From positions 1-12,115 of the forward strand of contig JACQCN010000015.1 of the NCBI GenBank assembly GCA_016201575.1: a DNA stretch of 12,115 nucleotides, in the 5' to 3' direction. The stretch's first letter is position 1; each line of letters begins with the position of its first letter. This document shows, one piece after another, positions 1-12,115 of this stretch. The DNA is from Candidatus Rokuibacteriota bacterium (lineage in GTDB: Bacteria; Methylomirabilota; Methylomirabilia; Rokubacteriales; CSP1-6). Below the pieces are notes generated by a model. It saw only the letters and a program-made list of their open reading frames with translations, was not told the DNA's origin and did not search any database. The position numbers were made by a program, and so were the translations under genes.

Positions 1-899
1 TGTGGGTCGCGGTGCGCCGTACGTGCGTCGGTGGCCGGCCGTGGCCCTTCCAACGCTTGGGGGGCCGCGGCGCCTCGCCCGGCGGCCACGCCGTCGTCTC
101 CTTCTTCACGCCGACGACGTACGCCAGTCCCGCCGTCGTGAGCGCCTCGCGAAATGCGGTGGTGTCGCCGTAGCCGGCATCCGCGAGCACGGGGCCGGGC
201 GGCACGCCCTCGGCCTGCACGGCCTGGATCTGCCCGAGCGCGATCTGCCACTTTGGCTGGAACGTGATGTGATCGGGCACCCCGGCGGCCCGCCGCCGCC
301 GGCGGTCGCCCGCCCAGCTCTCCGGCAGGTAGAGCTGATAGGCGACCGGCAGGCTCACCGCCTCGTTCGCCACCGACACACTCACCGCCACTTGGCAGTT
401 GTCCTGTTTGCCCAGGACGCCGCAGTACTGCCGGGCCACGCCCACCGAGTGCTGGCCTTTCTTGGGAAACCCGGTGTCGTCCACGATCCACGCGGCCACG
501 GGCCCATGCCGGGCCATCGGCGCCAGCACCCACTCCCGCGCGACGCCCAGCACCGCGCTGGCCTTTCTTGGGAAACCCGGTGTCGTCCACGATCCACGCG
601 GCCACGGGCCCATGCCGGGCCATCGGCGCCAGCACCCACTCCCGCGCGACGCCCAGCACCGCGGCGGCGTCCCAGGGCGCGTCGGCGACAAAATGATGCA
701 TCGACTGGTGGCGGGCGCGGACATGCCGCGGATCGATGCGTGCCGCCATCGGCTCGATGCTCTTGCGCTCCCCGGGCAGGCACAGGCCGGTGACGTAGGC
801 GCGCAGCGGCTCATGGCGATCCCGGTGGCCGAGCGCCGCGGCCAGGCGGTCCACATAGGCGGCGAAGCGTTGGGCACAAGCCGTCTCGGAGGTAGGCAT
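1..899 (-). pseudogene. IS701-family transposase, frameshifted and truncated by the window edge
   Basis: DDE transposase that would excise and insert the element. The ATG at 899 opens a frame with typical IS701 segments: an early helical part, LPGERKSIEPMAAR at about residues 41-54, HQSMHHFVADAPWD at 64-77, and WIVDDTGFPKKG at 102-113, which holds the first catalytic Asp. An exact 106-bp tandem duplication (451-556 and 557-662) then shifts the frame. The native sequence resumes only in another frame, with VGVARQYCGVLGKQDN, then VLADAGYGD holding the second Asp. The shifted frame stays open to the window edge but no longer encodes transposase. Deleting one copy restores one continuous family-like protein. 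The third acidic residue lies outside the window. The product is almost certainly inactive unless the duplication is an assembly error. Confidence 0.85.
451..663. repeat. Exact 106-bp tandem duplication inside the transposase
   Basis: Bases 451-556 are repeated without mismatch at 557-662, and one further base (663) continues the match. The period of 106 is not a multiple of three, so the second copy shifts the reading frame by one. The duplicated block encodes the segment from about AVLGVAREW to TGFPKKGQ, including the DD motif with the first catalytic Asp. The copies are identical, which suggests a recent event or an assembly artefact. Confidence 0.95.
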
Positions 900-1048
900 A
901 CGTCCAGCCTGGCAGGGTACCCCATGAATTCCCTAGCTTTTTTAACACAGTAGTATTAGTCCGGCACGCCGCTCAACTGGCCGGTTTTCTCAGCAGAGAC
1001 GGACGCGCGTGTCCGCTTGAGGCAGAGTCCCGGGTCAACCTCTTGCGA

Positions 1049-1067
1049 GCGCCGGCTCGGCCGGCGC
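1049..1067 (-). terminator. GC-rich hairpin 20 bp downstream of the OMP gene
   Basis: A perfect 8-bp inverted repeat (gcgccggc / gccggcgc) with a 3-nt loop lies just beyond the stop codon of the barrel gene. In the minus direction it is not followed by a T run, so it is not a textbook intrinsic terminator. Its position at the end of the pal-OMP pair makes a transcription-ending or mRNA-stabilising role plausible. Confidence 0.4.
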
Positions 1068-1086
1068 AATCCGAGGGGAGAGGTTC

Positions 1087-1746
1087 CTAGAAGCGGACGG
1101 AAATGCCGTAGAGGAGGTCCGACGTGTTCGCGTCGCGACCGATCGCCCGGCCGAGCGGCAGGAACTTCTCCGGGCCCGAGTTCGTGAACCGGTACTCGCC
1201 GAAGAGCGACGCGTTCTCGGCGAACTGCCAGGCGAGGCCGGCGCCACCGAGCACGCCGAGCGACAGCGACAGGTCGCGCTGGCTCGTGAGCGGGCCCACG
1301 GCGGTCACGTCGTCAGGCCGGACGACGAAGAGCGCGGGACCGAGCGACAGGTAGGGCTGGAGCTGTGTCTTCGCCGACGCGTCACGCGCCAGCGTGGGCC
1401 AGCGCAGCCTCAGGTCGAACGAGATCGCGTCGAAGTGCAGCCCCGTGTCGATCAGCCGGGTGGACCCGTCGGACGGACCCGACGCCGGCGCGAGCCCCTT
1501 CGAGGGCACGTTGGGCTGGATGCGCGAGACGTCCACGCCGACACCGAGCGAGCGGGAGCTGTCCAGCCAGTACCCGAGGCCACTCGGGAGCGACGCCGCC
1601 CCTGACCGGGCGGCGTCGCTTCCGGTCTTCGCGTCTTGCGCCGCGTCCGGCGCCGCCGGCGACCCGGCGCTAGCGACTCCCGCGCCGCTGGCCAAGCCGG
1701 CCAGGACGACCGCGCAAACCAGAACCACTCGGAACCAGCGAGTCAT
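1087..1746 (-). CDS. Outer-membrane beta-barrel protein (OMP_b-brl/OmpA-barrel type)
   Basis: Predicted small outer-membrane beta-barrel of unknown specific role. The N-terminus is a signal peptide: basic start (MTRWFR), hydrophobic core VVLVCAVVLAGLAS, and a likely cut after the VASA segment near residue 28. A low-complexity Ala/Asp/Ser stretch (about 30-52) follows. The remaining ~165 residues alternate polar and apolar residues in strand-like runs such as LGVGVDVSRIQ, ISFDLRLRW, PYLSLGPALFVV, ASLFGEYRF and LLYGISVRF. It ends in the aromatic residue (Phe) expected of a beta-signal recognised by the BAM complex. Length and pattern fit an 8-stranded barrel. A GTG one codon upstream (1749) is an alternative start; neither has a strong ribosome site. 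It lies 38 bp downstream of pal on the same strand, so the two are probably co-transcribed. Confidence 0.75.
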   Translation of the reverse strand: MTRWFRVVLVCAVVLAGLASGAGVASAGSPAAPDAAQDAKTGSDAARSGAASLPSGLGYWLDSSRSLGVGVDVSRIQPNVPSKGLAPASGPSDGSTRLIDTGLHFDAISFDLRLRWPTLARDASAKTQLQPYLSLGPALFVVRPDDVTAVGPLTSQRDLSLSLGVLGGAGLAWQFAENASLFGEYRFTNSGPEKFLPLGRAIGRDANTSDLLYGISVRF

Positions 1747-1787
1747 CACTCTGCTTCAAAGTCCCCGGAAAGGATAGCACGGGATCT

Positions 1788-2618
1788 CTACCGGCGCCGG
1801 ACGAGGGTGTGCGCACGCCGGTTCTTGGCCCAGCACGCCTCGGTGTCGTCGGTGCAGAGGGGCCGCTCCTCGCCGTAGCTGATGACGGTGATCCGGCTGG
1901 CCGGCACGCCCTGCGCGACCAGGTAGTTCATCGCGGACTCGGCCCGGTGGTGGCCGAGGGCCAGGTTGTACTCGTTGGTGCCCCGGTCGTCGCAGTGGCC
2001 CTCGATCAGGATCGCCGCCGACGGGTGCGCGCGCAGCCACTCCGCGTTCGCGTTGAGGACATTGGCCGCGTCGGGACGGATGTCGTACCGGTCGAAGTCG
2101 AAGTGAATGTCCCGCAGCTCCGGTACCGCGGCGAACTCCTTCGGCTCGGGGCGCATCGCCCCCGATACGCCCTGCCCGCCGCCGGCACCGCCCACTCCGC
2201 CGCCGCCGGCCGCGCCCGCGGCACCGGGGCCGACGCCCGATGCGCCCGTGCCGCCGCCCGTCGCCCCACCCGCGCCGCCCCGGCCGTCGCCCCGGCCACC
2301 CGCGCCGCCGGCGTCGCCCTGAGCCCCTCCGCTCCGCCAGTCACTGCCGTCGCCGCCACCCCGGCCGCCAGCTCCCTGGCCGGAGCCGGCGCCACCTCGC
2401 CCCTCGCCTCCGGCCATGTCCCCGCCGCCCGCACGGGCCGAGCCGGCGGCACCGCCCTGTTCCGAGCCATCGGCGCCGCTGCCGGCCCCCGATGCTCCGA
2501 CTCTTCCGGGCGCCACCGCCATCGACGTCGCCGGCTCTTTGGCGCAGCCGAAGAGGCAGAGAACCGCGATGCAGATCGGTACGACTACCGCGTGGAGTTG
2601 CCGTTGTGAGTGATCCAT
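1788..2618 (-). CDS. pal: Peptidoglycan-associated lipoprotein (Pal/OmpA C-terminal domain) with long Gly/Ala linker
   Basis: Outer-membrane lipoprotein that binds peptidoglycan and, in the Tol-Pal family, links outer membrane to cell wall during division. Residues 1-24 form a lipoprotein signal ending in LFG before the lipidated Cys25. Residues about 40-153 are an extraordinary Gly/Ala-rich low-complexity linker; canonical Pal has only a short tether. The OmpA-like domain covers about 164-276: DIHFDFDRYDI near 170-180, EGHCDDRGTNEYNLALG around 206-222 (peptidoglycan-binding loop), then HHRA and SYGEERP. C255 and C262 form the Cys pair common in Pal proteins (PLCTDDTEACW). The ATG follows a purine-rich leader (gagcgaggg) and directly starts the signal peptide. 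tolB, tolA and ybgF are not in the window. It is upstream of the OMP barrel gene in the same direction. Confidence 0.85.
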   Translation of the reverse strand: MDHSQRQLHAVVVPICIAVLCLFGCAKEPATSMAVAPGRVGASGAGSGADGSEQGGAAGSARAGGGDMAGGEGRGGAGSGQGAGGRGGGDGSDWRSGGAQGDAGGAGGRGDGRGGAGGATGGGTGASGVGPGAAGAAGGGGVGGAGGGQGVSGAMRPEPKEFAAVPELRDIHFDFDRYDIRPDAANVLNANAEWLRAHPSAAILIEGHCDDRGTNEYNLALGHHRAESAMNYLVAQGVPASRITVISYGEERPLCTDDTEACWAKNRRAHTLVRRR

Positions 2619-2702
2619 ACCCTCGCTCTATCTCCCCCTTACCCACGCCCGAGCAGTAACTGCGCCCGAGAAAGTTCGCTGCCTGAGCAGACTCTACGGC
2701 AG

Positions 2703-2718
2703 CGGTCCCCCGGGACCG
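2703..2718. other. Small inverted repeat between pal and the broken SBP56-like gene
   Basis: The arms cggtcc and ggaccg enclose a 4-nt loop. On the plus strand a short T4 run follows a few bases later, but no plus-strand gene precedes it. On the minus strand no T run follows. It could separate transcription of the upstream fragment from pal, but support is weak. Confidence 0.25.
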
Positions 2719-2748
2719 AAGTTTTGTGTGCGCGGCCGCGCGCCGGTG

Positions 2749-3024
2749 TCAGTTCGTCTCGGCGAGCAGGGTGCGGACGTCGAGGAAGGCCTGGCGGGAT
2801 CCGCCCCTGGCGGTCGACCAGGTAGAGGAGGTCGGAGAGGCGAGGTTCACGTCGATCACGCTCAGGAAGTCCGGCCCCTCACCGGCGGGCAGCGTCCAGG
2901 CGTACACCACCTTCTCGGGCTGGCGCAGGCCCCTGATGTACGGCGACAGGCACGTCTCCGCGTACACGGCGCCGGCGGCGAGCGCGACGGCGAGGAGCGA
3001 GCCGAGAGCGATCGAGCGTCCCAG
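2749..3024 (-). pseudogene. N-terminal fragment resembling selenium-binding protein SBP56 (methanethiol oxidase)
   Basis: The frame contains a signal-peptide-like run (SLLAVALAAGAVYA), then ETCLSPYIRGL, VVYAWTL and FLSVIDVN. These match the start of exported SBP56-family proteins, normally about 450 residues. Here the frame ends after about 91 codons. The last part does not look like SBP56. From 2839 to 2798 another frame reads LSDLLYLVDRQGRI, and from 2796 the original frame reads RQAFLDVRTLLAETN. Together they faintly recall a sorbosone-dehydrogenase-type beta-propeller with a one-base shift. There is no ATG, GTG or TTG ahead of the signal peptide. A CTG at 3024 sits 6 nt after a perfect ggagg and is the only well-placed start; the GTG at 2967 would cut off the signal. 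I read this as a decayed or chimeric remnant 78 bp behind the aminotransferase gene; a short functional peptide is less likely. Confidence 0.5.
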
Positions 3025-3102
3025 GAGCGACCTCCGTGTCCGATCGCTTCGCGGACTTGTACCCGGCTTGCGGGCGCGGCGCTCTGCGGGCGGAAGGCTC
3101 GC

Positions 3103-4419
3103 TCAGGAGACTTCGAGGGCGCAGACGGTGGCGAGGGCGCGCTCCAGGACCCGGAGCCCCGCGTCCAGCTCCTCGTCGGTGATGCTGAGCGGGCCGAGGA
3201 AGCGCACGACGTTCTTGTGCGCCCCCGCCTTGACGAGCACCACGCCGGCTCGGAGCGCCTCGGCGACGACGGCGCTCGCCGCCTCGGGCGCGGGCTCCTT
3301 GGTGCGCCGGTCGGTGACCAGCTCCATCGCCACCATGGCGCCGAGCCCCCGGACGTCGCCGACCAGCTCGTAGGCGGCCTGCCACGCGCGGAACCGCTCG
3401 AGCACGCGGGCGCCGATCGCGCGCGCCCGCGCGCCGCAGTCCTCCCGCTCGAGAATGTCGATCACGGCCAGCGCGGCGGCGCAGGCCAGGGGGTTGCCGC
3501 CGAACGTCGTGCCGAGGCCGCCGGGCGGCACGGCGTCCATCACGTCGCTGCGCCCTACCACCGCCGAGAGCGGCAAGCCGTCGGCGACCGACTTCGCGAC
3601 CGCGACGAGGTCGGGGACGACGTCGAAGTGCTCGATGCCGAAGCGGCGCCCGGTGCGATAGAAGCCGGTCTGGATCTCGTCGGCGATGAAGAGGATGCCC
3701 CGCTCCCGGCAGCAGGCGGCGATGCCCTGGACGAACGCGGCGGGCGGCACGATGAAACCGCCCTCGCCCTGCACCGGCTCCATGATGGTGGCCGCGACGC
3801 GATCCGCGCCCACGTCGCCGACGAGACGGCGGAACGCGTCGAGACAGGCGGCGACCGTCTCCGCCTCGGAGCCGAGGCTCGAGCGGTAGAGATACGGGAA
3901 CGGGCTCCGGTAGACCTCCGGCGCCAGCGGGCCGAAGCCCTCGCTCTTGGCCCGGCTCGTCAGCGTGAGGGTCAGGAGCGTCCGACCGTGAAAGGCGTTC
4001 TCGAACGAGATGACGGCCGGCCGGCCCGTCGCGTAGCGGGCGATCTTCACCGCGTTCTCGACGGCCTCGGCGCCCGAGTTGATGAGCATCGCCTTCTTGT
4101 CGCCGCGCCCCGGCGTGATCTCGCACAGGCGCCGGGCCAGGCGCACGTAGGGCTCGTAGGGCAGGACATGGAAGCAGGCGTGGAGCATGCGGCCGGCCTG
4201 CTCCCGGATCGCCTGGACGACCTCGGGGTGGTTGGCGCCCGCGTTGAGCGCGCCGATGCCGCCGCCGAAGTCGAGGTAGCGGTTGCCGTCGACGTCGGTG
4301 ATGACGGCGCCGCTGGTGGAGGCGACGAAGACCGGGTGCTGCTGGTCGACGCCGCGGGCGACGTATCGCTCCCGCAGCCGCATCAACTCCTGGGACCGGG
4401 TACCCGGAATATCCGCCAT
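3103..4419 (-). CDS. gabT: Class III PLP-dependent aminotransferase, 4-aminobutyrate (GABA) aminotransferase-like
   Basis: Cytosolic fold-type I, class III aminotransferase expected to move an omega-amino group from a donor such as GABA to 2-oxoglutarate, giving a semialdehyde and glutamate. Its 438 residues match the family length. Visible landmarks: DVDGNRYLDFGGGIG at 42-56; phosphate-binding NSGAEAVENAVK at 114-125; NAFHGRT at 141-147; EPVQGEGG at 214-221; IADEIQTGFYRTG at 245-257 with cofactor-contacting D247; the PLP-binding lysine K276 in AVAKSVADGLPL; and TTFGGNPLACAA at 304-315. The ATG follows a strong ggaggagg ribosome site. An aldehyde dehydrogenase gene lies upstream on the same strand across a repeat-filled spacer, so the two may form a degradation pathway. 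Acetylornithine, beta-alanine, 5-aminovalerate and putrescine enzymes are close relatives, so the substrate is inferred. Confidence 0.85.
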   Translation of the reverse strand: MADIPGTRSQELMRLRERYVARGVDQQHPVFVASTSGAVITDVDGNRYLDFGGGIGALNAGANHPEVVQAIREQAGRMLHACFHVLPYEPYVRLARRLCEITPGRGDKKAMLINSGAEAVENAVKIARYATGRPAVISFENAFHGRTLLTLTLTSRAKSEGFGPLAPEVYRSPFPYLYRSSLGSEAETVAACLDAFRRLVGDVGADRVAATIMEPVQGEGGFIVPPAAFVQGIAACCRERGILFIADEIQTGFYRTGRRFGIEHFDVVPDLVAVAKSVADGLPLSAVVGRSDVMDAVPPGGLGTTFGGNPLACAAALAVIDILEREDCGARARAIGARVLERFRAWQAAYELVGDVRGLGAMVAMELVTDRRTKEPAPEAASAVVAEALRAGVVLVKAGAHKNVVRFLGPLSITDEELDAGLRVLERALATVCALEVS

Positions 4420-4467
4420 GGCCGCCTCCTCCTCCCGAGTCTACTCCCTGGGCGGCGCCAACCCGAG

Positions 4468-4493
4468 GATCGCTCAAGAGCACCCAGATGCGA
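4468..4493 (+). repeat. Dispersed spacer repeat, copy A
   Basis: The segment gatcgctcaagagcacccag and its continuation agatgc resemble copy B (4603-4627) and, inverted, copy C (4692-4719). It shares the core gatcgctcaa-ag-cccagatgc with two or three substitutions. It lies near the aminotransferase side of the spacer, so the spacer carries three related units. Confidence 0.6.
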
Positions 4494-4503
4494 GCCGCCG
4501 GCC

Positions 4504-4574
4504 GTTCGAGCGAGCGCCGAAGGCGCGAGGCGAGGGCCGGCAGTTCGAGCGAGCGCCGAAGGCGCGAGGCGAGG
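4504..4574. repeat. Direct repeat, two 32-bp copies with 39-bp period
   Basis: The unit beginning gttcgagcgagcgccgaagg is present identically at 4504-4535 and 4543-4574, separated by 7 bp. Each copy contains a small palindrome (gcgcc-gaa-ggcgc) that could form a hairpin. No gene covers it. It resembles the GC-rich repetitive extragenic elements that multiply in bacterial spacers. Confidence 0.8.
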
Positions 4575-4600
4575 CCGTTACTCCCCGGCCGCCGACCGCG

Positions 4601-4721
4601 CAGATCGCTCAAAAGTGCCCAGATGCTAGGCGGCGAGGAGCGACGACTGAGGCGTACATCTGGTACGCCGCAGGGAGGAGCGACGAGCCAACGACGCAGA
4701 TGGGTACTTTTCAGCGATCTG
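4601..4721. repeat. 121-bp imperfect palindrome with central hairpin (repetitive extragenic element)
   Basis: The outer arms are 4601-4630 and the inverse of 4692-4721; the first 20 bases of each match at 18 positions (cagatcgct-aaaagt-ccc). At its centre is a perfect 7-bp stem, ggcgtac (4651-4657) and gtacgcc (4663-4669), with loop atctg. The midpoints of outer arms and inner hairpin differ by only one base, so they are concentric. Between them the 12-mer gaggagcgacga occurs as a direct repeat at 4635-4646 and 4675-4686, flanking the hairpin. The right arm runs into the aldehyde dehydrogenase gene and supplies its stop codon. It may act as a transcript-end structure, and its order suggests a mobile palindromic element. 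Confidence 0.75.
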
Positions 4722-6204
4722 CGGAGTCGATCTGGGCGCGCTGGAGACGGCCGGAGTAGTCGACGTACACCGTCTTCCACTCCGTCATGATGTCGAGCAC
4801 GGTCCACCCGCCCTCGCGGTGCCCGTTGCCCGTCTGCCGGACGCCCCCGAAGGGGAACTGCACCTCGGCCCCGATGGTCGAGGCGTTGACGTAGATGATG
4901 CCGGTGGCCAGCGCCTCGATCGCGCGAAAGGCGCGGTCGATGTCGCGCGTGTAGATGGCCGAGGAGAGCCCGTAGCTGGTGGCGTTGGCGATCTCGATCG
5001 CCTGGTCGAAGCTCTTGGCCCGCAGCACGGCCACGGAGGGCCCGAAGATCTCCTCGCGCGCGACCCGCATCGCCGGCTCGACGTCGGCGAAGATCGTCGG
5101 CCGGTAGAAGTGGCCCCGGGCGAGCGCCCCGTCGGTGGCGGGCTCGCCGCCGATCAGCACCCGCGCGCCCTCGCTCCGCCCGACCCGCGTGTACTCGTGG
5201 ATCCGCTGGAGCTGGCGGGCGTTGATGACGGGACCGACGTCGGTGCTGGGCTCGAGCCCCGAGCCCAGGCGCAGCCGGCGCGCGCGCTCGACGAAGCGGT
5301 CGGTGAACGCGCCCGCCACCGCCTCGTGGACGATCACGCGGCTCGCCGCCGTGCAGCGCTGGCCCGTGGTCCCGAAGCCGCCCCACACCGCGCCGTCGAC
5401 GGCGAGATCGAGCGCCGCGTCATCCATCACGATGATGGCGTTCTTCCCGCCCATCTCGAGTGACACCTTCTTGCCCTCCGCGGCACAGATCGTCGCCACC
5501 TGCCGGCCGACCGCGGTGGAGCCCGTGAACGAGACGAGGTCCACGCCCGGATGGCGGACGAGGGCGTCGCCCGCCTCCTCGCCGATCCCGTGCACGAGGC
5601 TCACGACTCCGCCGGGCAGCCCCGCCTCCGTCAGGATCTCGACGAGCACCGTCGCCAGGAGCGGCGTGTCCTCGGCGGGCTTGAACACCACCGCGTTGCC
5701 GCACACCAGCGCCGGAAAGATCTTCCAGGTGGGGATGGCCAGGGGGAAGTTCCAGGGCGTGATGACGGCGACGACGCCCACCGGCACGCGCACGGCCAGG
5801 CCGAGCTTCTGCGGGAGCTCGCACGGGGCCTGGACACCGAAGAGGCGCCGGCCCTCGCCGGCCATGTAATCGGCGGTGTCGATGCCTTCCTGGACGTCGC
5901 CGAGCGCCTCGGTCAGCACCTTGCCCATCTCGCGCGTCATCAGCCGCCCGATCTCGTCCTTGCGGCGCCGCAGGATCTCGCCGGCGCGACGGACCGCCTC
6001 GGCCCGGCGCGGGGCCGGCACCCGGCGCCACTGCGCGAAGCCCTCCCGCGCGGCCTGGACGGCGCGGTCGACGTCGCGGGCGTCGGAGCGGGGGAACCGG
6101 CCGATGAGGTCGGTGGTGTCGGCGGGGTTGAGGTCGTCGAAGGTCTGGCCGGAGACGGCCGAGACCCACTGACCGCCGATGTAGTTCTGGTAGACCTCTG
6201 ACAT
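4711..6204 (-). CDS. NAD-type aldehyde (semialdehyde) dehydrogenase
   Basis: ALDH-superfamily enzyme oxidising an aldehyde to a carboxylic acid in the cytosol; 497 residues, standard length. Visible motifs: TPWNFPLAIP at 149-158 with oxyanion-hole N152; FKPAEDTPL at 174-182 with K175 and E178, an acidic residue where NAD-preferring members bind the adenine ribose; FTGST at 226-230; general base E250 in LEMGGKNA; catalytic C284 in GQRCTAASR; EEIFGPS; and PFGGVRQTGNGHREGG near the C-terminus, a signature of the semialdehyde/aminoadipate-type ALDH group. The ATG has a good aggggagg ribosome site 6 nt upstream. The last codons and the TGA lie within the palindromic repeat. With the GabT-like neighbour a semialdehyde substrate (succinic, glutaric or similar) is likely, but the sequence does not settle it. 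A 17-bp palindrome 114 bp upstream may be an operator. Confidence 0.88.
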   Translation of the reverse strand: MSEVYQNYIGGQWVSAVSGQTFDDLNPADTTDLIGRFPRSDARDVDRAVQAAREGFAQWRRVPAPRRAEAVRRAGEILRRRKDEIGRLMTREMGKVLTEALGDVQEGIDTADYMAGEGRRLFGVQAPCELPQKLGLAVRVPVGVVAVITPWNFPLAIPTWKIFPALVCGNAVVFKPAEDTPLLATVLVEILTEAGLPGGVVSLVHGIGEEAGDALVRHPGVDLVSFTGSTAVGRQVATICAAEGKKVSLEMGGKNAIIVMDDAALDLAVDGAVWGGFGTTGQRCTAASRVIVHEAVAGAFTDRFVERARRLRLGSGLEPSTDVGPVINARQLQRIHEYTRVGRSEGARVLIGGEPATDGALARGHFYRPTIFADVEPAMRVAREEIFGPSVAVLRAKSFDQAIEIANATSYGLSSAIYTRDIDRAFRAIEALATGIIYVNASTIGAEVQFPFGGVRQTGNGHREGGWTVLDIMTEWKTVYVDYSGRLQRAQIDSADR

Positions 6205-7558: not shown

Positions 7559-7972
7559 CTACTCCCAGCCCAGCACGGCCGACCTGAATCGCGCGAGGTC
7601 GTCGAGGTGGTGGTTCAGGATCCTGACGACGATCGCCGGGTCCACCCGCGTGTACTCGTGGACGATCACGTTGCGACACTTCGCCATGCGGACCATGGCG
7701 TCCCTGAGCTCGGGTTCGAGCAGCCGGGCGTCGCCGAGGACCTCGAACGTCTCGGCGTACGTCGCGGGCACACGAAGTGCGCGGTCGGCGATGACGTGTG
7801 AGGCGATGTCCACGCCGGCCTCGATCGCGATCTGGAGGGTGCGCTCGACGATCCGCTGGGTTTTCCAGTCTCCCCGGTACTCCTCGACGCTGAGGCCGCG
7901 GTACTCGGAAAGCTGGCTCAGGTACAGCTCGATATCGGCGAGCTTCCGGAGGAGCAGGTCCCGGTCAACCAC
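7559..7972 (-). CDS. hepT: HepT toxin (HEPN-domain ribonuclease, DUF86)
   Basis: Toxin of the MntA-HepT type VII toxin-antitoxin system. HEPN dimers of this family cut RNA and are silenced when the partner MntA adds AMP to a tyrosine. The 137-residue length and all-helical sequence fit. The active-site motif R-X4-H-X-Y is present as RNVIVHEY: R100, H105 and the AMP-acceptor Y107, with the commonly conserved N101 after the Arg. Upstream helices include DIELYLSQLSEYRGLS and IAIEAGVDIASHVI, typical of DUF86. The start is a GTG whose first eight bases overlap the end of mntA (GTGGTTGA), so translation is coupled; cggaag 7 nt upstream may be the ribosome site. Antitoxin first, toxin second. It converges with the exported-protein gene at 7443. 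All key residues are intact. Confidence 0.88.
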   Translation of the reverse strand: MVDRDLLLRKLADIELYLSQLSEYRGLSVEEYRGDWKTQRIVERTLQIAIEAGVDIASHVIADRALRVPATYAETFEVLGDARLLEPELRDAMVRMAKCRNVIVHEYTRVDPAIVVRILNHHLDDLARFRSAVLGWE

Positions 7973-8396
7973 GCGAGTACTTCCGCGCGAGCAACCGATG
8001 CTCGACGATACGGAAGTCGAGGAACTTGCGGAGGGCCAGGGACTCGAAGCCGTGCCGGCGAAAGGGCTCGCGGTCGAGGATGACCCGTCGCGATTGCAGG
8101 ATCCGCCCGACCAGCGCCGTCGGAGCGGTGTTGAGCACGACGAGATCGACCTCGTCGGTGCCGAGGTGCCGACAGATCACCCCGAGCGCCTCGAGCTTGC
8201 CCTCGATGACGTCGACCCCCTCGTCGAGGTACACGGCGACGTCGACGTCACTCAGGGGCGCAAGCCGTCGCGTCGCCGCGCTCCCGAACAGGTACGCAAA
8301 CACCACGCCACGGCACCGCTCCAGCGCCTGGCCGAGTGTCCGCAGTCGCTCTTCGACGGTGTTGGGCAACGGGCCGTTCCGTATCACGTCCAGCAT
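7965..8396 (-). CDS. mntA: MntA antitoxin (minimal nucleotidyltransferase)
   Basis: Antitoxin that AMPylates the HepT tyrosine using ATP and Mg2+. The 143-residue protein has the minimal nucleotidyltransferase core: GSAATRRLAPLSDVDVAV at 38-55 gives the G-S-X10-D-X-D signature (G38, S39, D50, D52). A third metal-binding Asp is D84 in DEVDLVVLN. The C-terminal part (ILQSRRVILDREP, FRIVEHRLLARKY) matches the usual tail that packs on HepT. The ATG at 8396 has no Shine-Dalgarno sequence and is preceded directly by tata, forming TATAAT across the start. GTG at codon 4 (8387) is an alternative start and would be about +1 if TATAAT is a real -10. It overlaps hepT by 8 bp. The pair stands apart from the chaperone operon by 168 bp, as a mobile defence or stability module would. 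Confidence 0.87.
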   Translation of the reverse strand: MLDVIRNGPLPNTVEERLRTLGQALERCRGVVFAYLFGSAATRRLAPLSDVDVAVYLDEGVDVIEGKLEALGVICRHLGTDEVDLVVLNTAPTALVGRILQSRRVILDREPFRRHGFESLALRKFLDFRIVEHRLLARKYSRG

Positions 8397-8564: not shown

Positions 8565-8906
8565 TCAGGTTGCCGTGTCGGCCGCGCTGCCGTCAGCGTC
8601 CGGGTCGCGCGCGATCGCGCGCGCGATGAGCGCGCGGGCCGGCGCCGTCCGCCCCGTCGCGAGGAGCGCGAGCGCCAGCAGCCGTTCACCCCGGGGCGTG
8701 GCGTGGAGCCGACAGGCGGCCTGAGCCGGGCCGAGCGCCTCGGCCACTCGATCGGCGGCGCCCAGCGCCACCCGCGCAGTCTCGCGCAGCTCCCACGCCC
8801 TGTGCGCGACTCGCATGACGGCGGCGAGGTCGGATCCGCAGCGGGGGCAGACGGTCGCGCCCCGCCACGGCGTCCGGCAGGTGGGGCAGCGGAAGCCCGC
8901 GCTCAT
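8565..8906 (-). CDS. Zinc-ribbon protein, last gene of the Hsp70 operon
   Basis: Unrecognised 113-residue protein. Residues 1-25 form a zinc ribbon with two CxxC knuckles, CPTC (7-10) and CPRC (20-23), only 9 residues apart. The rest is helical and Ala/Arg-rich (about 30-102), for example VMRVAHRAWELRETARVALG and LLALALLATGRTAPARALIA. The latter has the look of a TPR-like helical hairpin. The tail is Asp/Ala-rich. Its ATG overlaps the stop of the Hsp70 gene (ATGA), and the ggagga ribosome site lies inside the final Hsp70 codons, so the two are translationally coupled. Function is unknown. Since the operon's J protein lacks the zinc-binding domain of classical DnaJ, this protein might supply a zinc or substrate-contact module in trans; that is a hypothesis only. 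Confidence 0.7.
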   Translation of the reverse strand: MSAGFRCPTCRTPWRGATVCPRCGSDLAAVMRVAHRAWELRETARVALGAADRVAEALGPAQAACRLHATPRGERLLALALLATGRTAPARALIARAIARDPDADGSAADTAT

Positions 8907-10717
8907 CCCTCCTCCACGTAGAACAGCAGCTCCGCCAGCTCGGCCGTCGCCTTGCCGAGGCGGTCGTGGTCGCCGGCCCTCAGCGACTCCTCGATTCCCT
9001 CGTGCAGGGCGATCGCCTCCTCGCGATCTTCGGCATTCATCCGGTCGAGCAGGCGCCGGCTCCGCTCGAGGAGCGCGCGTGCCTCGGAGATCGCCACCCG
9101 GCGGTCGCGGCCGGCCCGTTCCTCCGTGTTCTCGGTCTCCGCCGGAGCGTCCGGCGCTTCGAGATCGTCCTCGAGGTCGGGATGGTCGAGATCCTCCTCG
9201 TCCTCGTCGCCGAACAGCGCGAGCATCCGGCGTCGCGCCTGGGCGATCTCCTCCTCGGAGAGGGCGGTCGTCGCGCCCTCGATCGCGACGTGCTTGGCGA
9301 GGCCGGTGCCCTTCTCGGTGGCGGTCACCTTCAGGATCCCGTCGAGGTCCAGGTCCATGCGGCAGAGGATCTCGTTGCCCGCCGGAACGCGCGAGAGCCC
9401 CTCGATCAGGAAGCGTCCGACCGGAATATTGTTGAGCGCGTTGGGATCGTTCCCCTGGTAGACGCAGACCTGCCACGCCTCCTGGTTATCCGCCATCGTG
9501 AAATAGGACTCGGTCCGGCTCACGGGCAACGGGGTGTTGCGGGAGATGATCGGGCGGTAGCAGTGCTCGGAAGGCCGGCCGTCGAGGAGTCCGAAGTAGG
9601 AGGGACCGAAGGAGTATGGGGAGATGTCGACGAGCACCCGATCGACATCATGGCCGGACAGCCGGGCCGCCAGCACGCCGGCGCCCAGGGCCACGCCCAG
9701 CTCCGGATGCAGCTCCTGGCGCGGCACCCGGCCGGTCTTTTCCTCGAGCAGCGCCGAGACGAGGGGCGTTCGGGTCGCGCCGCCCACCAGGAGGATCTCG
9801 TCGACCTGCTCGGGTCGCTTGCCCGCATCGCTCAGCGCCTGGTGCAGGCTGTCGAGCGTCCCTTCGATCAGGTGGCGGGTCAGCTGCTCGTACTCGGAGC
9901 GCGACACCTCGAGGTCCAGGTGGACCGGAACTCCATCGCGTTCGGCCAGATGTTCTTCGGTGATCCGCGCGTAGGGCTCGAAGCTCAGCCGCTTCTTGGC
10001 GGCCTCGACGGCGTGCAGGAGACGGCTCATCGCCCGGCGGTCCGCGCGCACATCGGCGCCGCCCGTCGCCATGAACCGGCCGAGGACGTGGTCCAGCAAG
10101 AGCCGGTCGAAGTCGTCGCCGCCGAGGTGGTTGTTGCCGTGGCTCGCCAGAACCTCCGTCACGTCGCCGTGCACCTGCACCAGCGAGACGTCGAACGTCC
10201 CGCCTCCCAGATCGTAGACGAGCACGGTCCGCTCGCCCTGCCGGTCGGCGCCATAGGCGAGCGCCGCGGCAGTGGGCTCGTTGAGGACGCGCACGACGTC
10301 GAGCCCGGCGATCGCTCCCGCGTCGCGCGTGGCCTGGCGCTGAGCGTCCGAGAAGTAGGCCGGGACGGTGATGACCGCGCGCCGCACTGGCGCCCCCAGC
10401 GCGGCCTCGGCGCGGTCCTTGAGGGCGCGCAGGATCATCGCCGAGATCTCGGGCGGCGAGTACGTCTGCGCGCCCACGGTCAGCCGGCGGTTGTCGCCCA
10501 TGAGGCGCTTGATCGATTTGATCGTCTGCTCCGGATACAGGACGTACTGGTTGCGCGCGGGAGTGCCGACGAGCAGCGTGCCCCCGGGCGAGAGCCCGAC
10601 GTACGACGGCATGATCTGCTCACCGTCGGCCGCCAGCACCTGCACCTTCCCGTCGACGAGCGCCGCCACTTCGGAGTTGGTCGTGCCCAGATCGATGCCC
10701 ACGATGACGTCACTCAT
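8903..10717 (-). CDS. dnaK: Hsp70-family chaperone (DnaK-like, divergent)
   Basis: ATP-driven chaperone, 604 residues against about 640 in DnaK. The ATPase domain is complete: GIDLGTTNS (7-15), catalytic K70 in IKRLMG, VPAYFSDAQRQATRDAG (118-134), NEPTAAALAYG (146-156), DLGGGTFDVS (169-178), HLGGDDFD (197-204) and LVGGATRTP (310-318). Asn196 stands where DnaK carries the autophosphorylated Thr199. The linker is RVLVDISPYSFG (about 360-371), a variant of the VLLLDVTPLSLG segment. The substrate-binding part (about 372-485) is unusual, with SYFGLLDGRPSEHCYRP and NTPLPVSRTESYFT. An acidic stretch (about 504-519) precedes a shortened helical lid, and the C-terminus lacks a DnaK-type tail. Its ATG overlaps the grpE stop (ATGA). 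This is probably a specialised Hsp70 paralogue rather than the housekeeping DnaK. Confidence 0.88.
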   Translation of the reverse strand: MSDVIVGIDLGTTNSEVAALVDGKVQVLAADGEQIMPSYVGLSPGGTLLVGTPARNQYVLYPEQTIKSIKRLMGDNRRLTVGAQTYSPPEISAMILRALKDRAEAALGAPVRRAVITVPAYFSDAQRQATRDAGAIAGLDVVRVLNEPTAAALAYGADRQGERTVLVYDLGGGTFDVSLVQVHGDVTEVLASHGNNHLGGDDFDRLLLDHVLGRFMATGGADVRADRRAMSRLLHAVEAAKKRLSFEPYARITEEHLAERDGVPVHLDLEVSRSEYEQLTRHLIEGTLDSLHQALSDAGKRPEQVDEILLVGGATRTPLVSALLEEKTGRVPRQELHPELGVALGAGVLAARLSGHDVDRVLVDISPYSFGPSYFGLLDGRPSEHCYRPIISRNTPLPVSRTESYFTMADNQEAWQVCVYQGNDPNALNNIPVGRFLIEGLSRVPAGNEILCRMDLDLDGILKVTATEKGTGLAKHVAIEGATTALSEEEIAQARRRMLALFGDEDEEDLDHPDLEDDLEAPDAPAETENTEERAGRDRRVAISEARALLERSRRLLDRMNAEDREEAIALHEGIEESLRAGDHDRLGKATAELAELLFYVEEG

Positions 10718-11409
10718 GCTGGTGTGGTCCTCTCACCGGATCGAGCGCCGGCGACCTTGACTTCGGCGTACCGGATGACCCGGCCGTTCACAACGTATCC
10801 CGGGCGGAACACCTCGACCACTGTTCCCACCACCCCCGATGTCGTCTCGGCCACGTCCACGGCTCGCATCACGGCGGGATCGAACGGTTTGCCCAGGCAG
10901 GGGACCTCGACCACGTCCAGCCGCCTCAGCACGTCGTCGAGCCGATCGCGCGCGAGCGTGGCGCCCTCGACCAGCGCGGCGAGCACCGGGCGCTGACCGA
11001 AGCGCGCGCGGATCCCCCGGAGGGCCGCCAGACGGCGCCGGGCCTCGTCGAGACCGCGGGTGAACCGATCGCGCACCTCGATCAGCTCGGCCACGAGCTC
11101 GAGGCGGGCGTCCCGCCGAGCGTCGGCCAGTGTCCGCGCGATCGCCTCCGGGCTCCTCTCGACCAGCCTGTCGAGCGCGGCGCTCACGTCCGCGTGGAGG
11201 CGATTGGTGGCGCGGCCCTGGAGCTGCGTCTCCCGGGTCAGCGCAGCGAGCTGGCCGAGCACCGAGAAGAGGTCCGGCACCGGCTCGGGCGACGCCGTCA
11301 CCTCGGGCGCCAGCCCCGGCGGTGGGGGTTCCGCCGCGTCCAGGTCGTCGAGCCACCGCGCGAGCGCCGCCCCCAGGAGGCGCCGGCGTTCGGGATCGGC
11401 CGCGCTCAC
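10714..11409 (-). CDS. grpE: GrpE-like nucleotide exchange factor
   Basis: Predicted ADP-release factor for the adjacent Hsp70. With the GTG at 11409 as start it has 231 residues. That start overlaps the J-protein stop by GTGA, as at the other junctions; an open frame extends 10 codons further to 11439 but would overlap more. Residues 1-45 are Pro/Glu/Ala-rich; about 46-165 are long helices (LAALTRETQLQGRATNRLHA, LVAELIEVRDRFTRGLDEA) like the GrpE stalk. The C-terminal beta domain is the most recognisable part: LGKPFDPAVMRAVDVAET (172-189), GTVVEVFRPGYVVNGRVIR (195-213) and AEVKVA, matching the GrpE wing that opens Hsp70. The helical part is longer and more divergent than E. coli GrpE. Its stop overlaps the Hsp70 start. 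Confidence 0.82.
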   Translation of the reverse strand: MSAADPERRRLLGAALARWLDDLDAAEPPPPGLAPEVTASPEPVPDLFSVLGQLAALTRETQLQGRATNRLHADVSAALDRLVERSPEAIARTLADARRDARLELVAELIEVRDRFTRGLDEARRRLAALRGIRARFGQRPVLAALVEGATLARDRLDDVLRRLDVVEVPCLGKPFDPAVMRAVDVAETTSGVVGTVVEVFRPGYVVNGRVIRYAEVKVAGARSGERTTPA

Positions 11410-11696
11410 CGGCGATCCCCGCGGAGGACCCGGAGCCACGGCTCGGGGCCGACGTGGTGCCGCTCATCGGGAAACGCGTCGAGCAGTGCCTCCAGCCGGG
11501 CGAGGGGCGGCGGGCCGAACAGCCGCAGCGCCAACCGGCGCTCCGTGTCCTGGATGGCTTCGTAGGCCTCGCGGAGCCGGCGAAACCCGTCCGCATCGCG
11601 GTCAGGCGGGTGGCGCCGTATCGCGACGACGTAGGCGGCGCGCACCGTCGCGTCGTCGGCGGTGTCGTCGACGCCCAGCACCGCGAACGGATTCAC
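11406..11696 (-). CDS. Minimal J-domain protein with interrupted HPD motif
   Basis: Hsp40-type co-chaperone expected to stimulate ATP hydrolysis by the neighbouring Hsp70. The 96-residue protein is almost only a J domain: MNPFAVLGVDDTADDATVRA (helix I), AAYVVAIRRH (helix II), and FRRLREAYEAIQD (helix III). It has no Gly/Phe region, zinc domain or C-terminal substrate domains. The invariant HPD tripeptide reads H29-P30-P31-D32, with an extra Pro between Pro and Asp and a short loop before helix III. After the J domain comes a short tail (LRLFGPPPLARLEALLDAFP). The start is GTG, overlapping the upstream stop as GTGA, and its own stop overlaps the grpE GTG the same way. Its place directly before grpE and hsp70 supports the call despite the altered motif. 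Confidence 0.75.
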   Translation of the reverse strand: MNPFAVLGVDDTADDATVRAAYVVAIRRHPPDRDADGFRRLREAYEAIQDTERRLALRLFGPPPLARLEALLDAFPDERHHVGPEPWLRVLRGDRR

Positions 11697-12115
11697 GAGT
11701 TCCCTTCCAGGAGCTCGACGAGCTCGTCGAAGAGATCCCGCTGGCGTGGCCGGCGTCGCCCCCGCGGCGCGGGCGGGCTCTGGTCGGCCGCGAAGCGGGG
11801 AATGTCCAGGCGCCGGCGCTCGGCCGCCACCGTGCGCATGATCTCCTCCTGCGTCGGGGCCATGTCCCCGGTGAACGGATCATCCCGCAGGGACGGATCG
11901 AAGCCGCTCCCCGGCGGCATCGCGTCGAGGGCGGCCGACGCCTCCCGCACCGCCTCCATGTCCCGGGCTCGGCCCGCGATCCCCCGCGCCGCGCGCAGAC
12001 ATCGCCGGGCGCGTTCGCGGTCTCGCTCGCTTCGCGCGGCTCGCAGCGCCCGCCCGCGGGCCAGGAGAAACCGGTGCAGGAGGGGGCCGTCGTCCGCGAG
12101 GCCGCGCCCGGACGC
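11693..12115 (-). CDS. Unknown helical protein, N-terminus beyond the window; first visible gene of the Hsp70 operon
   Basis: No family recognised. The frame is open from its stop at 11693 to the window edge (140 residues visible), so ATG at 11959 is probably internal and the true start lies outside. The visible part begins with charged helices rich in Arg/Ala (HRFLLARGRALRAARSERDR and on through CLRAARGIAGRARDMEAVRE). A Pro/Asp-rich connector follows, then QEEIMRTVAAERRRLDIP, a basic run RGRRRPRQR, and the acidic end LFDELVELLEGNS. The pattern of helices followed by a short amphipathic C-terminal segment suggests a partner-binding or adaptor role. The stop overlaps the J-protein GTG (GTGA), so it is part of the coupled operon. 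Function not assigned. Confidence 0.6.
   Translation of the reverse strand, partial: ASGRGLADDGPLLHRFLLARGRALRAARSERDRERARRCLRAARGIAGRARDMEAVREASAALDAMPPGSGFDPSLRDDPFTGDMAPTQEEIMRTVAAERRRLDIPRFAADQSPPAPRGRRRPRQRDLFDELVELLEGNS

What the first reader, a model, noticed from the sequence alone, without database searches (positions are those of the whole stretch)
8565..12115. Self-contained Hsp70 machine in a tightly coupled five-gene operon
Seen: five consecutive minus-strand genes joined by four 4-nt overlaps (GTGA at 11693 and 11406, ATGA at 10714 and 8903): unknown helical protein, minimal J protein, GrpE-like factor, Hsp70, zinc-ribbon protein. Known: Hsp70, J protein and GrpE act as one ATP-driven cycle. 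Inference: two extra subunits of unknown family, made in fixed ratio with the chaperone, suggest a dedicated machine with its own client rather than a heat-shock copy. The client and the role of the flanking genes are open.
Basis: partly seen in the sequence, partly recalled or inferred. Interest (0 to 1): 0.72.

Follow-up and report, generated by a model that had tools for sequence, protein, structure and literature searches.

The report
Hsp70 operon with HPD-less J protein
A bacterial protein-folding machine of the Hsp70 type is encoded together with two little-known partner proteins and with a helper that looks like the usual Hsp70 trigger but lacks the trigger motif, and nearly the same set of genes recurs in distantly related bacteria.

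Summary
In detail: five minus-strand genes joined by GTGA, GTGA, ATGA and ATGA overlaps. The window is a whole contig, so gene 1 is cut off; its relative in G011 is an 814-residue predicted helical solenoid. The genome has a separate dnaK, a separate grpE-dnaJ and an hscA-hscB locus. The five-gene order recurs in G011 (fifth gene cut by the contig end), G221 and G389, and with a different fifth gene in G230: three phylum groups by the tool's kinship. The operon Hsp70s form one clade, G230's as sister.

It reads PPD in 80 of 83 homologues (one reads PPR, two have no residues there), PPD in G389, SPE in G221 and G230. The Hsp70 keeps its catalytic and J-docking residues.

Best reading: a dedicated Hsp70-GrpE machine using a pseudo-J subunit as docking adaptor beside a solenoid scaffold. 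The docking-only mechanism is inferred, not shown; the client is unknown. A new variant of a known kind.

The parts
11693..12115 (-). 3' end (140 codons) of the solenoid (TPR-like) gene, cut by the contig end; full-length relative in G011 has 814 aa
   Evidence: 54% identity to residues 675-813 of the G011 protein, E 4.1e-31; fold model of the G011 protein; Foldseek hits
11406..11696 (-). 96-aa J-like (pseudo-J) protein, PPD in place of HPD (reads HPPDRD)
10714..11409 (-). GrpE-type nucleotide exchange factor, 231 aa from the GTG inside the GTGA overlap (an upstream in-frame GTG at 11439 is possible)
   Evidence: PF01025 E 2.2e-22 over residues 83-219; 71% to G011
8903..10717 (-). Hsp70, 604 aa, with divergent substrate-binding domain (8-residue insert, no DnaK-like tail)
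   Evidence: PF00012 E 4e-137; alignment to E. coli DnaK; tree
8565..8906 (-). 113-aa protein with a CPTC...CPRC zinc-ribbon-like start and a tail likely helical (by eye)
   Evidence: Cysteine pattern shared with G011 (partial), G221, G389; zinc-ribbon and TPR matches below cut-off

Best explanation
This is a dedicated Hsp70 machine conserved as a gene unit: TPR-like solenoid, HPD-less J-like protein, GrpE, Hsp70, and a small fifth protein (zinc-ribbon-like in four of the five loci seen). Shown here: the gene set, its recurrence, the loss of HPD, the presence of the Hsp70 catalytic and J-docking residues, and the separate housekeeping system. Inferred: the J-like protein docks on this Hsp70 through its retained aspartate (facing R167) but, lacking the histidine that contacts the interdomain linker, does not itself trigger ATP hydrolysis. 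It would hold ATP-state Hsp70 on the solenoid scaffold until a bound client, or a true J protein acting in trans, triggers hydrolysis; the operon's GrpE then resets the cycle.
For: Gene order in G000, G011, G221, G389 and (fifth gene different) G230. Four operon Hsp70s are one clade, G230's its sister. J-like PPD in 80 of 83 homologues, PPD in G389, SPE in G221 and G230. dN/dS of J between G000 and G011 is 0.19, so the gene is under purifying selection. The Hsp70 keeps K70, E171, T199, D201 and R167, N170, E217, L391, D393, P419 in all four aligned operon copies. Simulations report that H33A leaves binding intact but blocks the stimulating state (PMC13012618 passages), which is the logic of a docking-only J. 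J position 48 and Hsp70 position 477, a reported salt bridge (K48-D477 in PMC8215388), go together: R-D in G000 and G011, K-D in G230, but A-R in G221 and T-K in G389 (G230 Hsp70 read by eye).
Against: The J-like proteins of all five loci have lost the basic residues at DnaJ positions 26 and 27 of helix II. K26 is among the J residues listed as contacting the Hsp70 (PMC13012618 passages); the part of R27 is recalled. So binding may be lost altogether. In G221 and G230 the aspartate itself is glutamate. The 48/477 pairing rests on five loci and few independent events. No complex was predicted and nothing is known of expression. PMC13254874 mentions a designed J analogue without HPD that does stimulate Hsp70, so lack of HPD does not prove lack of stimulation.
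Confidence: 0.42

Rival explanations
1. The J-like protein is a working co-chaperone: the divergent Hsp70 has co-adapted so that a PPD (or SPE) loop still triggers hydrolysis, as HPE in DjlB and DjlC is tolerated by the divergent HscC.
For: The operon Hsp70s are divergent in the substrate-binding domain and linker (VLVD or ILVD for LLLD; Q378 is L in G000 and G011); HPE with HscC is the published precedent (PMC13254874 section 7); the whole cycle incl. GrpE is co-encoded.
Against: DjlB/C keep the histidine, whereas here the histidine is the residue lost; the Hsp70 residue facing D35, R167, is unchanged; the basic residues 26 and 27 are gone.
Confidence: 0.3
2. The J-like protein no longer binds Hsp70 and is a structural subunit of the solenoid complex; the Hsp70 is driven by client alone or by the genome's HPD J proteins.
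For: Loss of the histidine and of the basic residues 26 and 27; strongly conserved C-terminal part outside the J-domain (G61, P62, P64, L65, G83, P84, W87, L88 at least 90% conserved in 49 rows); HPD J proteins are encoded elsewhere in the genome.
Against: The aspartate facing R167 is kept in 80 of 83 homologues; the gene sits between the first gene and GrpE in all five loci seen.
Confidence: 0.17
3. A redundant or heat-induced extra copy of the dnaK operon without special function.
For: Patchy occurrence: 2 of 95 genomes of the phylum, plus one short 5' remnant of gene 1 in G017.
Against: Separate Hsp70 clade, purifying selection, conserved partners of its own. No CIRCE-like element upstream of the four loci scanned or in the window, but the two canonical loci of this genome and E. 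coli dnaK gave none either, so that scan is no evidence.
Confidence: 0.06
4. A biological-conflict (defence) module that uses Hsp70-GrpE, like the GAP1-N2 GTPase systems with DnaJ and TPR proteins.
For: Those systems combine HSP70, GrpE, DnaJ and TPR domains (PMC7159879 passages); a MntA-HepT toxin-antitoxin pair lies downstream here and a similar-looking pair, named by eye, downstream in G230.
Against: No GTPase was noticed beside the operon in the ORF lists of the four other loci (by eye only). PADLOC at E up to 0.01 gives one weak Hsp70 match (E 7e-4) and nothing for the G011 solenoid, J, GrpE or the fifth protein. No match in 72,556 plasmid records (solenoid and J queries) or 50,697 phage records (J query only).
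Confidence: 0.05

Closest known systems
DnaK-DnaJ-GrpE
   Same: Hsp70 with catalytic and J-docking residues present; co-encoded GrpE; J-domain fold
   Different: J protein lacks HPD and, at 96 residues, has no room for DnaJ's zinc-finger and client-binding domains; Hsp70 has an SBD insert and no DnaK tail; two additional genes; a canonical set exists elsewhere in the genome
HscC with DjlB/DjlC (E. coli)
   Same: Specialised Hsp70 with SBD-beta insertion, partnered with J proteins whose motif deviates
   Different: DjlB/C have HPE and are tail-anchored; HscC lacks the GrpE signature, whereas here a GrpE is co-encoded
Pam16 (J-like subunit of the mitochondrial import motor); type IV JDPs
   Same: J-domain fold with HPD non-conservatively replaced, in a dedicated Hsp70 machine
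   Different: Pam16 pairs with the functional J protein Pam18; no second J protein was found in this operon
DnaK1-DnaJ3-GrpE of cyanobacteria (PMC9239167) and the M. xanthus DnaK homologue SglK (recalled name)
   Same: Dedicated DnaK system with its own physiological task (pilus activity and polysaccharide)
   Different: The words TPR and tetratricopeptide do not occur in the cyanobacterial paper's main text; relatedness to either was not tested here
Thermus Hsp70-Hsp40-DafA complex (PDB 9dvi, seen as an entry title)
   Same: Hsp70-Hsp40 assembly with a third protein
   Different: Its J protein is a normal DnaJ (recalled); relatedness to DafA not tested

Membership tests
Type IV (pseudo) J-domain protein | Recognisable J-domain | tested here: met
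Type IV (pseudo) J-domain protein | HPD non-conservatively replaced | tested here: met
   PPD in 80 of 83; 1 reads PPR, 2 have no residues there. 17 of 83 read H-P-P-D, as the window does, and HMMER's gapped pairing puts HPP on HPD; no HPD under either reading
Functional (class C) J protein | HPD motif | tested here: not met
Functional (class C) J protein | Stimulates Hsp70 ATPase | not testable with these tools
   needs biochemistry
Hsp70 (PF00012) | Family match, catalytic residues and linker aspartate | tested here: met
   458.4 bits; K70, E171, T199, D201 and D393 kept in 4 of 4 aligned operon copies
DnaK equivalog | NCBIfam DnaK cut-off | tested here: not met
   TIGR02350 486.8 bits against a cut-off of 822.55; NF001413 493.6 against 648
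HscA | NCBIfam HscA cut-off | tested here: not met
   TIGR01991 397.2 bits against 708.55
HscC-DjlB/C | HPE motif in the partner J protein | tested here: not met
   PPD or SPE
HscC-DjlB/C | 4-8 residue insertion in SBD-beta | tested here: met
   8-residue insert relative to E. coli DnaK in 4 of 4 aligned operon copies; whether it is the same insert as in HscC was not tested
GrpE | PF01025 over cut-off | tested here: met
   79.9 bits against 25.8; also over cut-off in G221, G389 and G230
TPR repeat protein | Pfam TPR over cut-off | tested here: not met
   no family at E up to 0.1 for the G011 protein; not over cut-off in G389; over cut-off in G221 (TPR_14) and strongly in G230
TPR repeat protein | Helical-repeat solenoid fold | tested here: met
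   all-helical model, pLDDT 84.5, pTM 0.54; Foldseek best E 2.9e-6 with low TM-scores, to chains that I recall as TPR-type or related helical-repeat proteins
GAP1-N2 GTPase conflict system | GTPase gene beside Hsp70-GrpE | tested here: inconclusive
   none noticed by eye in loci L044, L071, L076, L138; no profile search done
SglK/GrpS of M. xanthus | Orthology | not tested
   no M. xanthus sequence was fetched

The most novel reading that the evidence does not exclude
A separate class of Hsp70 machine in which the J-domain has become an obligate docking subunit without trigger, and hydrolysis is triggered by the solenoid-bound client itself: an Hsp70 gated by its client rather than by a J protein, with its core of four genes kept together in at least three phylum-level groups.
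Probability: 0.25. Interest if true: 0.82.

Novelty: new variant of a known kind. Interest (0 to 1): 0.62.

Why it matters
A 2026 review says it remains enigmatic whether J-domains without HPD are accidents of evolution or selected, and asks whether they compete for or recruit Hsp70 (PMC13254874, section 7 and passages). Here an HPD-less J-domain is fixed in a family of 83 retrieved homologues, under purifying selection between the two copies compared, and co-encoded with one dedicated Hsp70 and one dedicated GrpE, in bacteria. This makes the question testable with five purified proteins. It also adds partners that lack a matching curated family: Pfam and PADLOC have none for the 814-residue solenoid, Pfam, NCBIfam and PADLOC none over cut-off for the fifth protein; NCBIfam was run on the 140-residue fragment of the solenoid only.

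Tried and rejected
Rejected: the only-copy explanation (separate dnaK, grpE, dnaJ; an isc-type locus with hscA and hscB, whose other genes I named by eye). Rejected for lack of support: mobile origin. No plasmid match with the solenoid or J query and no phage match with the J query; in viral contigs with the solenoid alignment, 10 stretches matched a pattern and none was confirmed; operon GC is 72.7% against 71.6% for the rest of the window. Third-codon GC is 0.88-0.90 in the operon genes against 0.96 in two neighbouring genes, a difference that I do not explain.

Led nowhere: the genome-contig scan with GrpE gave one spirochaete locus with an ordinary grpE-dnaK-dnaJ (named by eye). The G318 match (61 residues) was set aside as a probable generic repeat match. 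The CIRCE scan was empty, and so were its controls. The four-genome phylum of G230 gave no second copy of its J-like protein: the other five hits match about 60-70 residues in frames of 376-391 residues. Papers: no paper for sglK with grpS, for a DnaK-TPR-GrpE-zinc ribbon operon, or for 'PPD motif' with J-domain. Searches listed papers on J proteins and Hsp70 in general; I opened five of them by passages or one section, and none of what I saw describes this operon. This is an open-access library, so absence is not proven.

Against my reading, told in full. The solenoid profile built without distant rows finds G389 (E 9.6e-12) but not G221 or G230 among 384 sequences; G221 is linked through G389 (blastp E 2.4e-25), and one search's strong score for G221 is not independent, as its own sequence was in the query. 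G230's first gene is an ordinary TPR protein, placed by position only, and its fifth gene is a TPR protein with an apparent membrane helix and without the cysteines. HPD loss is not unique to this operon: of 35 J-domain hits read in five genomes (36 listed; one had no locus), 24 contain HPD and 11 do not: 4 operon proteins, 3 SPD proteins beside canonical dnaK, 4 others. Only 2 of 95 genomes of the phylum have the solenoid beyond a remnant; in the phylum of G221 2 of 5. The searches score few candidates per genome and genomes are incomplete, so these are lower bounds. The Hsp70 tree is a selection: G218 gave no usable row, a duplicate of G352 was removed, and G275, G335 and the shorter hits were not entered; the make-up of the G000 and G011 operon rows is flagged as deviant, and one row is very long. 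The solenoid gene of G000 is a fragment; its dN/dS of 0.54 is over 138 residues. The fifth gene's dN/dS was not computed.
Full report
1. The observation. The window is the whole of contig C196 of a genome in 471 contigs (2.57 Mb, 77% complete). The five minus-strand genes and the four 4-base overlaps are exactly as described. Pfam finds DnaJ, GrpE and HSP70 over their cut-offs; the first gene has no match, the last only zinc-ribbon and TPR matches below cut-off. The contig ends inside gene 1.

2. What gene 1 is. In G011 (same family, another genus) the unit lies on one contig: an 814-residue protein, J-like protein, GrpE, Hsp70 and the start of the zinc-ribbon-like gene, with the same GTGA overlaps at the first two joints. 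The 814-residue protein has 154 homologues at E up to 0.001 (the best 120 listed), no Pfam match, and a predicted all-helical fold (mean pLDDT 84.5, pTM 0.54). Its Foldseek matches (best E 2.9e-6, low TM-scores) are to chains that I recall as TPR-type or related helical repeats. One source calls several homologues TPR repeat proteins and others hypothetical.

3. Not the housekeeping copy. The genome has a high-scoring DnaK on C276, GrpE plus DnaJ on C266, and an Hsp70 and a J protein in an isc-type locus on C152 (isc genes named by eye). G011, G221 and G389 likewise have other, higher-scoring Hsp70s and HPD J proteins. The NCBIfam DnaK and HscA cut-offs are not reached by the operon Hsp70.

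4. Recurrence. In the 95 genomes held of the phylum, the solenoid is found in G000 and G011, with a short 5' remnant in G017. Among 388 relatives spread over the domain, a search with the Hsp70 substrate-binding domain matched 16 genomes, G000 and G011 included, at E up to 1e-20. Of the other 14 I opened the surroundings of four: G221 and G230 carry the operon, G352 an ordinary dnaK-dnaJ, G203 a lone Hsp70. G389, from the five-genome phylum of G221, carries the full set. Pfam confirms DnaJ and GrpE domains in G221, G389 and G230, and gives nothing for the fifth protein of G221 and G389. By source name, homologues come from MAGs called Rokuibacteriota, Tectimicrobiota, Binatia, Deltaproteobacteria and Nitrospinae. 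As a further, indirect sign of linkage, the longest-contig lengths listed for the homologues coincide: 12 shared lengths between solenoid and GrpE (null mean 0.38, maximum 3), 9 between solenoid and J (0.28, maximum 3), 7 between GrpE and J (1.42, maximum 6), 5 in all three (118, 120 and 82 lengths, all that the three lists gave).

5. One lineage. In a 32-row Hsp70 tree the four operon copies are one clade (100/100), G230's is its sister (100/99), then G203 (98/98); the rows are a selection and some make-up warnings apply. Between G000 and G011 the operon Hsp70 branches (0.14 each) are about as long as those between their DnaKs, which fits descent with losses; in G221 and G389 they are much longer (0.69, 0.57) than those of their DnaKs (0.15-0.20). 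dN/dS between G000 and G011 is 0.19 for J, 0.20 for Hsp70, 0.31 for GrpE and 0.54 for the solenoid fragment.

6. The J protein has no HPD. Of 83 homologues, 81 have residues at the motif: all 81 have proline at the histidine position and proline next; 80 then have aspartate, 1 arginine. G389 reads Y-P-P-D, and G221 and G230 read Y-S-P-E, in line with E. coli Y-H-P-D. Because the window reads H-P-P-D, a gapped pairing can place its H on the HPD histidine. The family column there is S in 57, H in 17, C in 4, A in 3 and a gap in 2, so I prefer the ungapped reading. The predicted fold puts the motif between helices II (15-28) and III (35-49), as in J-domains. As a control, 24 of 35 J-domain hits in five genomes contain HPD; the 11 without it include the 4 operon proteins but also 7 others.

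7. The Hsp70 looks competent. In E. coli DnaK numbering, K70, E171, T199 and D201, and R167, N170, E217, L391, D393 and P419, are kept in all four aligned operon copies. Differences: an 8-residue insert early in SBD-beta, F or L for M404, M or S for A429, Q378 replaced by L in two, and no DnaK-type tail.

8. Mechanism. H33 of DnaJ contacts L391 of DnaK, P34 P419, D35 R167 and Q378, and K48 D477 (PMC8215388, passages). Simulation finds that H33A still binds but cannot bring on the stimulating state (PMC13012618, passages). A J-domain that keeps the aspartate and loses the histidine is thus expected to dock without triggering. The partner pair 48/477 is consistent with continued docking but rests on five loci. 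Loss of the basic residues 26 and 27, and glutamate for aspartate in G221 and G230, speak against docking. I give docking-only 0.42, a co-adapted working J 0.30, a structural remnant 0.17. Which process it serves is unknown: by eye, no gene outside the five is shared at the same place between the loci.

9. Known or new. Each core part belongs to a known kind (Hsp70, GrpE, type IV JDP, helical solenoid). The combination, in bacteria, as a conserved operon with an HPD-less J, I did not find in print with searches. The nearest described cases that I saw are HscC with DjlB/C (HPE), Pam16, and a dedicated DnaK system for pilus-linked polysaccharide in cyanobacteria (PMC8215388 and PMC9239167 by passages, PMC13254874 by passages and section 7). 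I call it a new variant of a known kind.

Noticed in passing
window 7559-8396 (-): A HepT toxin / MntA antitoxin pair (NCBIfam, over cut-off; MntA also matches PADLOC candidate models PDC-S09) sits downstream of the operon on the same strand. G230 has a similar-looking pair about 5 kb downstream of its operon (L138 11102-11949, named by eye).
   Followed up: partly
L010 (G000:C276), L116 (G011:C119), L115 (G017:C257): The J protein encoded beside the highest-scoring dnaK reads SPD instead of HPD in all three genomes of this family that were read, so HPD loss is not confined to the operon.
   Followed up: partly
window 451-663: A perfect 106-bp tandem duplication (not a multiple of 3) inside the DDE_5 transposase frame at 2-925: a real frame-changing duplication or an assembly effect.
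   Followed up: no
window 4497-4577 and 8622-8693: Short tandem repeats between the aminotransferase and aldehyde dehydrogenase genes, and two 36-bp copies inside the zinc-ribbon-like gene.
   Followed up: no
L139 (G389:C854) 172-4964: Two very divergent Hsp70-like genes close together, one with an apparent von Willebrand A-like C-terminus (by eye); that one is the longest branch in the Hsp70 tree.
   Followed up: no
L073 6642-8483 (G203): An Hsp70 without J or GrpE neighbours in the ORF list (by eye) that branches just outside the operon Hsp70s and G230 (98/98).
   Followed up: no
L052 around 1501-1761 (G017): A short 5' remnant of the solenoid gene followed by sequence that looks unrelated (by eye), suggesting loss of the operon in a related genus.
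   Followed up: partly
window 8565-12115: Third-codon GC of the operon genes (0.88-0.90) is lower than in two neighbouring metabolic genes (0.96) although overall GC is alike; not explained.
   Followed up: no
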